Shown one piece after another: positions 9,604-15,149 of a stretch of 52,265 nt of DNA (position 1 is its first letter; every line of letters begins with the position of its first letter). The notes under the pieces are model-generated. The model was not told the DNA's origin. It made no database searches and saw nothing but the letters and a program-made list of their open reading frames with translations. Position numbers and translations under genes: made by a program. Where the stretch lies: the NCBI GenBank assembly GCA_019636815.1, contig JAHBWT010000021.1:1-52265 (forward strand). The letters are read 5' to 3'. This DNA comes from Nitrospira sp. Its GTDB lineage: Bacteria; Nitrospirota; Nitrospiria; Nitrospirales; Nitrospiraceae.

Positions 9604-9987
9604 CTAGGCCTTAAAAGCAGCCACAGCCTCCTCTTCTGTGTTGTACAACTGAACATTTTCTGCATACACGCGATTCAACAGATTAAATCCGCTGGCTTCA
9701 AGGGCTTCTTTGACCATCCCCTTCGCTGCAGCAATCTTCATCTCCCCTTGCACGTTGTTGAGCTGCTTGCCCGCCAAAATAAGGACCCGGATGCCACCAC
9801 TGCTGATATAGTCGACATCAGCCAAGTTGACGACGACTTTTCGTGCGCCCGCGTCGACAATCTTTTTCATTTCCTGACTCCCGTGCTCGGCCGTGGTGGC
9901 GGCAAGACTTCCCTGCATTTTCACAACGGTGACGCCGGCATTCTCACGCGAGGTCACGGTCAATGTGTGTCGGGTCCCTTGGTCCAT
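9604..9987 (-). CDS. STAS-domain anti-sigma factor antagonist
   Basis: A single-domain 127-residue STAS protein of the SpoIIAA/RsbV type. Such proteins bind an anti-sigma kinase when unphosphorylated and release the sigma factor. The core motif N-L-A-D-V-D-Y-I-S-S-G-G-I-R-V-L contains the serine that is phosphorylated in the family. A strong Shine-Dalgarno (AAGGAGA) precedes ATG 9987. It lies 246 bases downstream of the SpoIIE-like fusion protein, which carries a phosphatase, an anti-sigma-kinase-type ATPase and its own STAS domain, so the two genes probably form one partner-switching module. No sigma factor is present in the window. Confidence 0.9.
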   Translation of the reverse strand: MDQGTRHTLTVTSRENAGVTVVKMQGSLAATTAEHGSQEMKKIVDAGARKVVVNLADVDYISSGGIRVLILAGKQLNNVQGEMKIAAAKGMVKEALEASGFNLLNRVYAENVQLYNTEEEAVAAFKA

Positions 9988-10233: not shown

Positions 10234-10578
10234 CTAGACTTTCTCTTGGATCTTCGAAAGAGCTTCGTCAAGCGTGGCGGCATAGAGGCTCATAATCATG
10301 GCCCCACTCAATTGGAGCACCGTGCGGACCTGGTCGTTCCCTCCACAGAGCACCACCCTTCCACCTGTTCGGATCATCGCCATCACGGCCTTCAGGATTA
10401 CCCGCAGCCCAATCGAGGAAATATACGAAATGTCAGAGAGATCCAGCACGATCTGGCGTTCTCCCCGCCCGATGTGGTCGGTCAGAACACGCTCCACCTC
10501 CGGTGCACTGTTCGTGTCGAAGCGGTCCTTCGGGGTGACGATCATCGCAGTACCGTTCCGACGTGATTCGACACTCAT
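10234..10578 (-). CDS. Stand-alone STAS protein from an internal start inside the fusion gene
   Basis: The ATG at 10578, codon 853 of the larger frame, is preceded by AAGGAGAG about five bases upstream, a stronger ribosome binding site than that of the long gene itself. Translation from it would give a 114-residue stand-alone STAS protein with the conserved Y-I-S-S-I-G-L core. So the locus may yield both a full-length fusion and a free antagonist. Alternatively, two originally separate genes have been joined by loss of a stop codon in the linker. This is an inference from the sequence and would need start-site or protein evidence. Confidence 0.5.
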   Translation of the reverse strand: MSVESRRNGTAMIVTPKDRFDTNSAPEVERVLTDHIGRGERQIVLDLSDISYISSIGLRVILKAVMAMIRTGGRVVLCGGNDQVRTVLQLSGAMIMSLYAATLDEALSKIQEKV

Positions 10579-13134
10579 TTCTACTCTCCTTATGTCTTGG
10601 CCTGATGGTTGCGGTAGCCTCTCGACTTCGAACGCGCTGAACCCGGCCCTGTCCCGACGTTTCATAGAGATGGACAGCTCAGATGCCAACTTCTTCTTCA
10701 CCGTCAGAACATTGCGTCCCACATTGCGATGATATGTTACCTCGTCGAACATGGAGCGGACTAGATGAATCCCCAAGCCGCCGATTTCACGTTCGTGGAG
10801 CAGCAACGACAGGTCCGGTGGCGCGACGGTTAACGGATTGAAGGGAATACCATCGTCGGTGATGGTCAGAACGACATAGTCCTCACGCACCTCCCCTTCT
10901 ACTTCAATAAGGTGCTCCGCCTGATCACCGGGAAACGCATACTGCACGATATTGTTGAGCAGATCATCCAGCGCCATATTCAGAGTCGGGATGAGCGGCT
11001 TGGCCGTTGTCCATTGCGCGACATACTGCTCAAACGCCGTCTGCAGGTCGGGAATGGCCATCAATTGGTTGGGCATCGTTTGGTGAAAGACCCTAGCCGC
11101 CACGTCGGACGGAGCGACACCGTGATACCGCAGGCCCAACATGGTGATATCGTCCGCCTGCGGAGCATCTCCGGCAAAGGCCCTCACCGCGTTCATAACC
11201 TCACCAAGACGATCGACGACGGAGACGGCCCGGGATTCGGTGAGAACCGATCTCAACCGGCTGTTGCCGAACAGTTCACGCCGCCTATTATCGGCTTCGG
11301 TAACCCCATCGGTGTACAGGAACAGCTCATCCCCCGGACCCAATTGAATCATGCTTTCCTTGAACGCAATGCCCGGCATGGGGCCGACCATGGGTCCGTC
11401 TTGGGCCGTCAGCCACTCGAACTGTTCGTTCTGCCGTTTCAGCAGCGGAGGGTTGTGCCCCGCGTTCGTCGCGAGCAGTGTCCCATCCCGAAGATTCAAG
11501 ATACCCAGGTACAGCGTCACGAACATGCAGGAATCGTTATCTGCGCTGAGCGCATCATTCACGTGGGTGACGATGCTGGCAGGAGAGGGGTCGGACACGG
11601 CTCTGGTTTTGACCATGATCTTGGTCATTGCCATAAAGAGCGCGGCAGGAACTCCGTTGCCCGATACATCGCCGACCACGAAACACAGCCGATGATCATC
11701 GACGAGAAAGAAATCGTAGAGATCGCCTCCGATTTCGAGGGCCGGTTCGAGCACTGCATACAGTTCCAGCTCCTTCCGATCGGGAAATGCGGGAAACACA
11801 CGCGGGAGCATGCTCCTTTGGATATCCCGGCCGACATTCAGTTCCTCCTGCATACGGGCTTTTGCGGCTTCCACCAACGCCAACGAATCCGCTAAGCGTG
11901 CCGTGGCGTCTTCGGCAGCCTGCTCGGCATTTTTCAGAGCCGTAATGTCTGTGGCGATGGCGACAATACCGCCATCGTGCGTCTTCTTTTCATGAATTTG
12001 GATCCACTCGCCGCTAGAACGGTGCTGAAGGTAGGGCCCTTGGGGGTTGTGGTGCATCTCGAGACGCTTTTTCACCCAGGAATCGACATTCCCGATCGCC
12101 GCGGGGATATCGCCTCGTTCCGCGATGCGGCGTATGATCGATTCAAATGAATCGCCTGGCTGGACTTCAGCCCCAGCTCCGGAGACCACTTCGCGATACT
12201 TATGATTGCAAATCACCAGGCGATCGTCTGCGTCGAAGAGCGCAAACCATTGTGGGACGCTTTCGATCGCTTCGAGCAACCGAGCATGACTATGGCGTGC
12301 CAAACTTGACGCCTTCGTCACTTGCCGATCGATGATGGCCAGAAGGGTCGAGAGCGACACCGCGACAACCGCGAGAAGTTCCACTTCGATTCCCGGTGGT
12401 GAGACGGTGGTCGTGAGGCCTAAAAAACTGTACGCAGGAATCATCCCGGCCAAATGAGAAGCGGACAGGGCAATCCCCATGGCGCTTGCCTTTTCCGTTA
12501 CCCGCCAATCCCCGTACGTAATGTTCCATCCACCGACCAAGAGAACAAAGATACCCAGCCCGACCATCACCACAACGGAGAAGATGAAAAGAGGCAAATC
12601 GTGACTCACATCGGCCATCTGGTGGATCGCCATCAGACTCGTGAAGTGCGTCACCAACAGGCAGGCGCCCATCAGCAACCCACCGGACACCAGTCGGAGA
12701 TGGCTCCCGTCATGGGTACTGATGAGATACACCGACACGGCCCCTGCCGCCCCGGCGGATAGGATGGAAACAAGGGCAAGGCCCACGTCCTGTGCGGCTG
12801 GAATCGGCGGACAGAAGGCCAGGTTACCGACGAAGTGGATCGCCCAGATCTCAAGCCCGCCCGCAACGGCTCCAACCGTGAGCCAGCGCATCTTGAAGGA
12901 GCCTTGTTCGGTTGCCCGCATGCGTTCGGCAATGCTGAGGATGACGTAGGCCGCCGAGCCACCGAGCAGCATCGAACAGACCGCAAGCACTGGGTCGCAA
13001 ATCCCCAACACGAAAGATCTCCAATCAGAACGTTCTGGCCACGACGCTGTGGAACACCATGAAACGCACCCCAGGCCCATGACAGATGGTGCCAAAGCAA
13101 AGTTGGAAATGACCAGCCCGGAGTTGAGTACCAC
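10234..13134 (-). CDS. MHYT-PAS-SpoIIE phosphatase-HATPase-STAS fusion regulator
   Basis: A 966-residue membrane signalling protein that combines every component of a partner switch. Residues about 40-290 form a seven-helix MHYT sensor. About 295-410 is a PAS domain, followed by a short coiled coil. About 440-650 is a SpoIIE PP2C phosphatase (A-L-E-I-G-G-D-L-Y-D-F and G-N-G-V-P-A-A-L). About 690-815 is an RsbW-like HATPase (N-N-I-V-Q-Y-A-F and G-G-L-G-I-H-L-V). Residues 853-966 are a STAS domain (D-L-S-D-I-S-Y-I-S-S-I-G-L-R-V). The 35-residue linker before the STAS domain looks unstructured and an efficient internal start lies at its end (see 10234-10578). The N-terminal start is uncertain: GTG 13134 has no good Shine-Dalgarno and ATG 13080 is an alternative. 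Confidence 0.88.
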   Translation of the reverse strand: MVLNSGLVISNFALAPSVMGLGCVSWCSTASWPERSDWRSFVLGICDPVLAVCSMLLGGSAAYVILSIAERMRATEQGSFKMRWLTVGAVAGGLEIWAIHFVGNLAFCPPIPAAQDVGLALVSILSAGAAGAVSVYLISTHDGSHLRLVSGGLLMGACLLVTHFTSLMAIHQMADVSHDLPLFIFSVVVMVGLGIFVLLVGGWNITYGDWRVTEKASAMGIALSASHLAGMIPAYSFLGLTTTVSPPGIEVELLAVVAVSLSTLLAIIDRQVTKASSLARHSHARLLEAIESVPQWFALFDADDRLVICNHKYREVVSGAGAEVQPGDSFESIIRRIAERGDIPAAIGNVDSWVKKRLEMHHNPQGPYLQHRSSGEWIQIHEKKTHDGGIVAIATDITALKNAEQAAEDATARLADSLALVEAAKARMQEELNVGRDIQRSMLPRVFPAFPDRKELELYAVLEPALEIGGDLYDFFLVDDHRLCFVVGDVSGNGVPAALFMAMTKIMVKTRAVSDPSPASIVTHVNDALSADNDSCMFVTLYLGILNLRDGTLLATNAGHNPPLLKRQNEQFEWLTAQDGPMVGPMPGIAFKESMIQLGPGDELFLYTDGVTEADNRRRELFGNSRLRSVLTESRAVSVVDRLGEVMNAVRAFAGDAPQADDITMLGLRYHGVAPSDVAARVFHQTMPNQLMAIPDLQTAFEQYVAQWTTAKPLIPTLNMALDDLLNNIVQYAFPGDQAEHLIEVEGEVREDYVVLTITDDGIPFNPLTVAPPDLSLLLHEREIGGLGIHLVRSMFDEVTYHRNVGRNVLTVKKKLASELSISMKRRDRAGFSAFEVERLPQPSGQDIRRVEMSVESRRNGTAMIVTPKDRFDTNSAPEVERVLTDHIGRGERQIVLDLSDISYISSIGLRVILKAVMAMIRTGGRVVLCGGNDQVRTVLQLSGAMIMSLYAATLDEALSKIQEKV
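10579..10590 (-). promoter_or_regulatory. Internal Shine-Dalgarno inside the SpoIIE-STAS fusion
   Basis: On the minus strand the bases just before ATG 10578 read AAGGAGAGTAGAA, a near-consensus ribosome binding site placed inside an uninterrupted reading frame. It marks the beginning of the STAS domain precisely, which is what would be expected if the domain is also translated independently. Confidence 0.65.
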
Positions 13135-13210: not shown

Positions 13211-14206
13211 TCAATGCACCGGCTGGTTGAGCCGTTCCCAGCGCGGCGACCGCGTACTGGAATCCACCGACCAGTGGATGAATACGACCTGTCCCAGAAC
13301 TTGGGACTTGTTGATGGGCCCTAAGAAGCGGCTATCCAGGCTCTCCTCTCGATTGTCTCCTAAAACAAAATAGGTATCCGGTGGAACGGTCATTGGTCCG
13401 ACATGATCGCGCACGTTCCCGGGCGCCAGAGGTTGGTCGGTGTGCTGCACATACGGTTCCGTTAATACTTCGCCGTTCACTGAGAGGGTCTGCGTACGGA
13501 TCTCGATCCGATCTCCGGGAAGACCGATCACGCGGTGCACAAAGCGCTTTCCTTCCTCGTCCGGATAGTGATACAGCACAACCTCTCCACGCCGCGGTCC
13601 AGCTGCATGATAGGCAGCCCTGTTCACAATGACATGGTCCCCGGGCAAGAATGTAGGAAGCATCGCCTCGTTAAAAATTTCGAACGTCTGCGACCGGGCT
13701 CGCACCACCGGTAAGAGATTCGGGAGGCGATCAGTCACAAAATTTCGACGAAGAACCTGCATCTGAGACGATGCGTGCAGGACTTGACTTTCATATTCAA
13801 CGATCAGTGTCTGAGCCTCTTTGATTGATAGGGTTCCGGTATAGTATTCGGCGAGATGATGCTCCCAGAAGTCGGCGGGAGCCAGGTCAAACAGCATCAC
13901 TTTGAGTGAGCCCTCGAACGATCGCTTGATGCGCTCAAAGTCGGTTGGGAGCAGCGGACTGGCGAGGTCCGACTGGAGCTCGAGTTGATGGCTATATCCC
14001 ACCATATCGGCCTGATCCACAACCGCCTGGTACAGACGATCCGAACATACTTCCAGGTGTGCCAGTGGTCGAAAAACGTTGTTCAGTTCTTGGTCGCGAT
14101 GCGAAACGGTAACCGGGGCACTGCTGCATCCGGCCCACAGCCCAATGCCTGCAGCAAGCAGGCAAATCGCCGTGCGATTCGGAGATCGATTGAAGAGGAA
14201 GAACAC
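13211..14206 (-). CDS. Signal-peptidase-I-like lipoprotein lacking both catalytic residues
   Basis: The C-terminal half is a signal peptidase I (S26) domain with recognisable boxes: A-M-L-P-T-F-L-P-G-D, R-G-E-V-V, H-R-V-I-G-L-P-G-D and L-G-D-N-R-E-E-S-L-D-S-R. The serine that normally precedes Met in the first box is Ala181 (GCG codon), and the general-base lysine before R-V-I-G-L-P-G-D is His224 (CAC codon). The enzyme is therefore unlikely to be an active Ser-Lys peptidase. The N-terminus has a signal sequence ending in an imperfect lipobox (L-W-A-G-C, Cys27) instead of the usual membrane anchors. About 150 helical residues follow that I do not recognise. GTG 14206 is the only start seen. 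It lies upstream of the SpoIIE fusion on the same strand. Confidence 0.85.
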   Translation of the reverse strand: MFFLFNRSPNRTAICLLAAGIGLWAGCSSAPVTVSHRDQELNNVFRPLAHLEVCSDRLYQAVVDQADMVGYSHQLELQSDLASPLLPTDFERIKRSFEGSLKVMLFDLAPADFWEHHLAEYYTGTLSIKEAQTLIVEYESQVLHASSQMQVLRRNFVTDRLPNLLPVVRARSQTFEIFNEAMLPTFLPGDHVIVNRAAYHAAGPRRGEVVLYHYPDEEGKRFVHRVIGLPGDRIEIRTQTLSVNGEVLTEPYVQHTDQPLAPGNVRDHVGPMTVPPDTYFVLGDNREESLDSRFLGPINKSQVLGQVVFIHWSVDSSTRSPRWERLNQPVH

Positions 14207-14348
14207 AGGTGCGGGAATTTTGCCGTTCAGTCAACCCTCCTTTTCGTTCTTGGCTTGGGTAGGATACCGCACCAGGCCTAAATGGGGAAAGCCTCTTGAG
14301 TACAGGTATTCCGGCGTGTCCAGCCGACGACCCTCAGAAAATTGAATA

Positions 14349-14420: not shown

Positions 14421-15149
14421 ATGGCGAATCGAAAGATCATCGGTCTCCTTGGTCTCATGCTGTGCATAGGGCTTTTGCTGTCTCCAAAGGATGGATCAGC
14501 GGAATGGTATGCTGATGCTTATGCGGGAGCTGTCTGGACTGCAAACACGGACCTCACCGTGACCAGTTCATTGGGAACCACGACGACCTACCAGAATCTC
14601 GACGTACACAACAGTTGGACGGCTGGTGGTCGTGCGGGGTACTGGCTCGACAAAACCAAGATGGACTGGCTTGGATTTGGGTTGGACGTCTTCTTCTTTG
14701 ATCTCAAGACGCCTCCTGGGCAACAGGTCGGCATGACCGGTACCGGGGGAACCACCACACAATTCGCCCATTGGAGCTTGCCGGCATGGGGAATCGGTTT
14801 TGACGTGCTACGCCTGCGTCTCCCACTCCTTCGAGATCAAGAATTCGTCCATGGACGCGTGCAACCCTACCTCGCCGTTGGGCCTACCGTATTCATTACC
14901 TATGCGGGTCAAAACTCGTTTGTGCAGCCGGGTGGACAAAGCTCCACCGATGCATCCGTCGGTGTCAAAGTCGATGCGGGAGCGACAATCATGGTCACGA
15001 AACGGATCGGGGCGTTCGCACAGTATCGCTTCACGCACTTCACCACCGAATTGGAGTACCAGAACAACACCCCGTCCCCCGCCACGGAAACCTTCAAGAC
15101 CACGTACGACACCCATCACGCCATCGCAGGGTTGTCCTTGCGCTTCTGA
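14421..15149 (+). CDS. OmpW-like outer-membrane beta-barrel protein
   Basis: A 242-residue protein with a clear N-terminal signal peptide (charged start, a hydrophobic stretch L-L-G-L-M-L-C-I-G-L-L-L, processing near G-S-A-E). Alternating hydrophobic strands with aromatic girdles follow, and the protein ends in a C-terminal L-R-F, the terminal phenylalanine recognised by the BAM complex. Repeated Y-x-G/A-x-A-x-V strands at the N-terminus of the mature part resemble small eight-stranded OmpW/OmpA-type barrels. The substrate is unknown. ATG 14421 has AGGAGG nine bases upstream. A strong hairpin follows at 15177. Confidence 0.8.
   Translation: MANRKIIGLLGLMLCIGLLLSPKDGSAEWYADAYAGAVWTANTDLTVTSSLGTTTTYQNLDVHNSWTAGGRAGYWLDKTKMDWLGFGLDVFFFDLKTPPGQQVGMTGTGGTTTQFAHWSLPAWGIGFDVLRLRLPLLRDQEFVHGRVQPYLAVGPTVFITYAGQNSFVQPGGQSSTDASVGVKVDAGATIMVTKRIGAFAQYRFTHFTTELEYQNNTPSPATETFKTTYDTHHAIAGLSLRF

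What the first reader, a model, noticed from the sequence alone, without database searches (positions are those of the whole stretch)
13211..14206. A signal-peptidase-I fold carried by a lipoprotein, with both catalytic residues replaced
The domain keeps the structural boxes of S26 peptidases, including G-D-N-R-x-x-S-x-D-S-R. The nucleophile serine is Ala181 and the general-base lysine is His224; both codons were checked on the minus strand. Ser-His variants are known in SipW/ER types, but Ser to Ala removes the nucleophile altogether. The N-terminus is a lipobox-like signal instead of a membrane anchor, plus an unrecognised helical domain. This suggests a non-enzymatic, envelope-anchored protein that may bind signal peptides or pre-proteins.
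Basis: partly seen in the sequence, partly recalled or inferred. Interest (0 to 1): 0.75.

Follow-up and report, generated by a model that had tools for sequence, protein, structure and literature searches.

The report
Conserved dead signal peptidase lipoprotein
Many Nitrospira bacteria carry, besides their normal signal peptidase, a lipid-anchored relative that keeps the enzyme's shape but has lost its cutting residues; evolution has preserved this inactive form, usually next to the gene of a signalling phosphatase, so it probably binds peptides or a partner protein instead of cutting.

Summary
Window 13211-14206 (minus) encodes a protein with a strong peptidase S26 domain (PF10502, 134 bits) whose catalytic Ser/Lys are Ala181/His224. 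The genome has a separate LepB with Ser/Lys intact. Orthologues occur in 43 of 79 same-genus (Nitrospira) genomes. Of 35 aligned, position 181 is Ala 26, Ser 6, Thr 3; position 224 is His 32, Gln 2, Leu 1; never Ser with Lys. Nearly all other signal-peptidase box residues are kept and S26-domain dN/dS is mostly below 0.25: a maintained pseudoenzyme, not decay or error. The lipobox cysteine is invariant (35/35). A helical domain of about 130 residues, found only in Nitrospiraceae, precedes the fold. The tree suggests Ser was lost first, then Lys became His. The gene sits upstream of an MHYT-PAS-SpoIIE-HATPase-STAS protein; all 43 genomes with it also have that protein. Best explanation: a non-cutting, lipid-anchored peptide- or partner-binding protein, possibly an envelope input to that partner-switching module. 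Closest known: Streptococcus SipA, Staphylococcus SpsA. Automatic annotation would call it active signal peptidase I. The likely start is a conserved CTG at 14230. Its binding target and role are unknown.

The parts
   Evidence: CTG/TTG/ATG at the same position in the aligned genus orthologues; Shine-Dalgarno-like GGAGGG at 14240-14235
14126..14230 (-). lipoprotein signal peptide ending in lipobox LWAG-C27 (Cys codon 14128-14126)
   Evidence: Cys27 invariant 35/35; LspA and LolA families present in the own genome
13700..14101 (-). N-terminal all-helical domain, residues 36-169, no known family
   Evidence: AlphaFold model from alignment A2, pLDDT mostly 85-96; no Pfam or PDB sequence relative; found only in Nitrospiraceae among 396 Nitrospirota genomes
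13214..13696 (-). S26 signal-peptidase-fold domain, residues 171-331
   Evidence: PF10502 134 bits; Z 15.1 to E. coli LepB and 14.0 to SipA
13664..13666 (-). Ala181 at the nucleophile (LepB Ser90) position
13535..13537 (-). His224 at the general-base (LepB Lys145) position
13328..13360 (-). Box E GDNREESLDSR; same as LepB except Glu at the Asp276 position
10234..13134 (-). conserved downstream neighbour: MHYT-PAS-SpoIIE(PP2C)-HATPase-STAS protein; conserved part begins near 13025
   Evidence: Pfam; same order and strand in nearly all genus loci examined; co-occurrence
9604..9987 (-). stand-alone STAS (anti-sigma antagonist-like) protein, next in the cluster
14421..15149 (+). outer-membrane beta-barrel protein, a frequent neighbour
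   Evidence: OMP_b-brl 30.2 bits; near the orthologue in about half of the loci

Best explanation
A retained, non-catalytic signal-peptidase-I homologue (pseudoenzyme). It is exported, lipidated at Cys27 and held on the periplasmic side of a membrane, with the lipid and the helical domain standing in for LepB's transmembrane anchor. SHOWN by sequence comparison: Ser and Lys are never together in the family; the rest of the S26 scaffold and the peptide-cleft positions are kept; purifying selection acts; the lipobox Cys is invariant; a normal LepB is separate; the neighbourhood with an MHYT-SpoIIE-HATPase-STAS protein is conserved. INFERRED: it cannot cleave by the S26 mechanism. INFERRED, weaker: the cleft still binds an extended peptide (signal-peptide-like or an envelope protein segment), as a scaffold, chaperone or sensor. 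INFERRED, weakest: occupancy is relayed to the adjacent membrane MHYT phosphatase, which would set the phosphorylation state of STAS proteins (partner switching).
For: Dyad absent in every full-length family member: A/H 29, S/H 5, A/K 4, T/H 3, A/Q 2, S/L 1, G/Q 1, G/K 1, against S/K in 48 LepB-type sequences. Kept in 35/35: Met91, Gly98, Asp99, Arg146, Gly272, Asp273, Asn274, Arg275, Ser278, Asp280, Ser281, Arg282 (LepB numbers); hydrophobic or aromatic at 84, 95, 101, 132, 143, 144 in all. dN/dS of the S26 domain is 0.02-0.23 in 15 of 17 pairs. LepB fold: Z 15.1, rmsd 2.7 over 148 residues; SipA Z 14.0. Cys27 35/35. Own LepB with IPSGSM/FIKR. Phosphatase gene next door; 43 genomes with both, 12 phosphatase only, 24 neither, 0 pseudoenzyme only, Fisher p 1e-11, not corrected for phylogeny.
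Against: No experiment. SipA, the best analogue, also kept its cleft but showed no detectable peptide binding in vitro (PMC4049620). One subclade has Ser with His, an arrangement that is catalytic in ER/archaeal-type enzymes. The link to the phosphatase rests on position and co-occurrence only; in one subclade an outer-membrane-protein gene on the other strand lies between them, and the distant relatives have other neighbours. Shared ancestry inflates the co-occurrence statistic.
Confidence: 0.6

Rival explanations
1. Still a peptidase, with a different mechanism: His224 with another residue, or a Ser-His/Thr-His dyad in some members, cutting special substrates as ER/archaeal-type Ser-His enzymes do.
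For: His in 32/35; five sequences are Ser/His and three Thr/His; the Lys-to-His exchange is the ER/archaeal pattern (PMC2913515); LepB Ser278 equivalent and box E intact.
Against: Ala in 26/35 with no other conserved Ser beside it; one Ser member has Leu at 224 (L118) and two Ala members have Gln; Ser members are nested among Ala members. By sequence it is P-type, not archaeal/ER-type (TIGR02228 21.8 bits, below its cut-off of 51.85).
Confidence: 0.06
2. Purely structural platform: the S26 fold binds a protein partner (for example the MHYT or the beta-barrel protein) by its surface or the helical domain, without using the cleft.
For: The loop at LepB 87-90 has drifted from P-S-G-S, while fold-defining residues are fixed; the helical domain is a new surface; conserved neighbours.
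Against: Cleft hydrophobic positions are kept; conservation alone cannot separate cleft use from folding needs.
Confidence: 0.27
3. Decaying paralogue or sequencing error.
For: Only the raw exchange of two catalytic residues; G155 shows a frame break in its copy.
Against: 43 genomes, intact frames, dN/dS far below 1, same exchange in independent assemblies including single-contig genomes.
Confidence: 0.02

Closest known systems
Streptococcus pyogenes SipA (PDB 4n31, 4k8w; PMC4049620)
   Same: P-type S26 fold, both catalytic residues replaced (Asp, Gly), cleft kept; structural match Z 14.0
   Different: SipA belongs to sortase-pilus clusters of Gram-positive bacteria and has also lost the LepB Gly272 and Ser278 equivalents; here these are invariant, the protein is a lipoprotein with a helical domain, and no pilus gene was seen among the neighbours scanned
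Staphylococcus aureus SpsA (inactive SpsB paralogue; PMC12445088)
   Same: second signal peptidase homologue lacking the two catalytic residues, beside an active essential one
   Different: not compared by sequence here; no lipobox or helical domain reported as far as I know
LepB / signal peptidase I (TIGR02227, MEROPS S26A)
   Same: fold and boxes apart from the dyad; Z 15.1 to E. coli LepB
   Different: no Ser/Lys dyad, no transmembrane anchor, lipobox, extra domain
ER/archaeal-type signal peptidases (Sec11; SipW)
   Same: His at the general-base position
   Different: they keep the nucleophile Ser; this protein groups by sequence with P-type enzymes

Membership tests
Peptidase S26 fold family (PF10502) | score over the curated cut-off and LepB fold | tested here: met
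   134 bits against 22.9; Z 15.1
Active signal peptidase I (S26A) | catalytic Ser in the S-x-S-M motif | tested here: not met
   Ala181; Ala 26, Ser 6, Thr 3 of 35
Active signal peptidase I (S26A) | general-base Lys | tested here: not met
   His 32, Gln 2, Leu 1 of 35
Active signal peptidase I (S26A) | cleaves pre-proteins | not testable with these tools
   needs an assay
ER/archaeal-type Ser-His signal peptidase | Ser nucleophile with His | tested here: not met
   Ala in the window protein; Ser/His in only 5 family members
Bacterial lipoprotein | signal peptide with lipobox Cys | tested here: met
   LWAG-C; Cys 35/35; Trp at -3 is unusual
Bacterial lipoprotein | lipidation in the cell | not testable with these tools
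   LspA and LolA families are in the genome
SipA-like pseudo-signal peptidase | S26 fold without the dyad | tested here: met
SipA-like pseudo-signal peptidase | lies in a sortase-pilus gene cluster | tested here: not met
   neighbours are MHYT-SpoIIE-STAS, STAS, DEAD-box helicase, beta-barrel protein

The most novel reading that the evidence does not exclude
A lipid-anchored dead signal peptidase works as the periplasmic receptor of a partner-switching pathway: it binds uncut or misplaced signal peptides or pre-proteins and passes the signal to the adjacent MHYT-SpoIIE-HATPase-STAS protein, so that Nitrospira would read secretion load through a recycled protease.
Probability: 0.12. Interest if true: 0.8.

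Novelty: new variant of a known kind. Interest (0 to 1): 0.5.

Why it matters
Pseudo-signal-peptidases have been described in a few Gram-positive bacteria. I found no report of one in Nitrospira, as a lipoprotein, with a new helical domain, or beside a signalling phosphatase (search limited to an open-access library). The family shows intermediate states (Ser/Lys, Ala/Lys, Ala/His), so the loss of catalysis can be followed step by step. The curated model TIGR02227 would name it an active signal peptidase I, which could mislead annotation of nitrifiers and comammox bacteria.

Tried and rejected
Sequencing error or decay: rejected by 43 genomes and low dN/dS. Replacement of a missing LepB: rejected, an intact LepB exists in the own genome; G099, which seemed to lack one, has a partial LepB match (29.6 bits, profile positions 2-37). 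Single-sequence structure prediction failed (pLDDT 38); a 30-row alignment gave pLDDT 78. No paper in the library joins MHYT, SpoIIE and STAS, and none found describes a Nitrospira pseudo-signal peptidase. No terminator-like site was found on the minus strand between this gene and the phosphatase, weak support for one transcript. A strict operon is not universal: a beta-barrel gene on the opposite strand lies between the two in one subclade.

Full report
CHECK. The ORF at 13211-14206 (minus) encodes 331 residues. Residues 172-312 match PF10502 with 134 bits. Pairwise alignments with S. aureus SpsB and B. anthracis signal peptidase I place Ala181 and His224 on the catalytic Ser and Lys; one of these solved SpsB chains (4wvg) itself bears Ala at the Ser, apparently an engineered variant. 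Codons on the minus strand: GCG at 13666-13664 and CAC at 13537-13535.

GENOME. The genome (4.0 Mb, 95% complete) holds two PF10502 matches: this one and a LepB with IPSGSM and FIKR intact. Orthologues at about 56-79% identity occur in the genus; those with record titles are Nitrospira MAGs. 43 of 79 genomes of the genus have the orthologue; the 44th hit of that search, G170, is a Ser/Lys paralogue.

RESIDUES. In 35 aligned genus orthologues position 181 is Ala 26, Ser 6, Thr 3 and position 224 is His 32, Gln 2, Leu 1. Other LepB box residues are invariant or nearly so: Met91, Pro93, Gly98, Asp99, Arg146, Gly149, Pro151, Asp153, Gly272, Asp273, Asn274, Arg275, Ser278, Asp280, Ser281, Arg282. 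The loop at 87-90 has drifted. Forty-eight LepB-type sequences are all Ser/Lys. The equivalence to E. coli LepB numbers was set by motif, and the list of cleft positions is from my knowledge of the LepB structures.

SELECTION AND HISTORY. dN/dS of the S26 domain is 0.02-0.23 in 15 of 17 close pairs, and 0.46 and 0.48 in two pairs with few changes. A maximum-likelihood tree (quick search, moderate supports) places the family next to LepB-like paralogues with Ser/Lys; Gly/Lys (G112) and Ala/Lys (second genus) relatives branch before the Ala/His clade, and Ser/His members are nested inside the Ala clade. The simplest reading: Ser was lost first, Lys later became His, and Ser came back once without Lys. 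Repeated independent losses of Ser are less simple but not excluded. Codons agree with this (Ala mostly GCG, Ser TCA or TCC).

ANCHOR AND START. Cys27 is invariant in 35/35; the Ala/Lys relatives of the second genus have no lipobox. LspA and LolA families are present in the genome. In this genome the frame opens right after a TGA with CTG. In the orthologues the same position is CTG in most, TTG in two and ATG in one subclade, 34 codons before the Cys, with a Shine-Dalgarno-like stretch just upstream. The true start is therefore probably CTG at 14230-14228, which shifts residue numbers by 8. The residue after Cys27 is Ser, which by the E. coli rule (from memory) would send the protein to the outer membrane; untested.

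FOLD. A model from a 30-row alignment has mean pLDDT 78 and pTM 0.76: a helical domain at 36-169 and the S26 fold at 171-331. The S26 part aligns with E. coli LepB (Z 15.1, rmsd 2.7, 148 residues) and SipA (Z 14.0, rmsd 3.5, 133 residues). The helical domain matched no Pfam family in this protein and was found in 35 of 396 Nitrospirota genomes, all of the same family; G112, of a third genus in that family, also carries a diverged form.

NEIGHBOURS. The gene is followed on the same strand by an MHYT-PAS-SpoIIE-HATPase-STAS protein, and further on by a STAS protein and a DEAD-box helicase, in nearly all genus loci examined. All 43 genomes with the pseudo-peptidase have that phosphatase; 12 have the phosphatase alone and 24 neither (Fisher p 1.1e-11, not corrected for shared ancestry). 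A distant Ala/Lys relative (L067) has other neighbours.

MECHANISM. Without nucleophile and base the S26 mechanism cannot run. Since scaffold and cleft positions are under strong constraint, binding is the likely remaining role, as proposed for SipA, where peptide binding could not be shown in vitro (PMC4049620). The link to the phosphatase is a hypothesis from gene order.

KNOWN KINDS. Dead signal peptidases are known: SipA (PMC4049620) and SpsA (PMC12445088). Ser-His enzymes are known in ER and archaea (PMC2913515). This is a new variant: a lipoprotein form with a lineage-specific helical domain in Nitrospira.

Noticed in passing
14228-14230 (-) and the same position in the genus orthologues: Probable CTG start codon conserved across most same-genus genomes (TTG in two, ATG in one subclade), with a Shine-Dalgarno-like stretch just before it.
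   Followed up: partly
10234-13134 (-): One polypeptide joins MHYT sensor, PAS, SpoIIE phosphatase, RsbW-like ATPase and STAS antagonist, i.e. all the parts of a partner-switching pathway.
   Followed up: partly
L131:1429-2781 (-), genome G130 contig C2: A second pseudo-S26 protein of another kind: Ala and Arg at the catalytic positions, LADN instead of GDN, long multi-helix N-terminus.
   Followed up: no
L132:1486-2049 (-), genome G130 contig C2: Short S26 protein next to a TraC-like ATPase gene; the usual catalytic Ser motif was not evident.
   Followed up: no
L161:1858-2595 (-) and L041: Ser/Lys-intact S26 paralogues that branch nearest the pseudoenzyme family and may resemble its ancestor.
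   Followed up: partly
L167 (genome G155): The orthologue is split by a frame break between residues of about 209 and 217; real decay or assembly error not settled.
   Followed up: no
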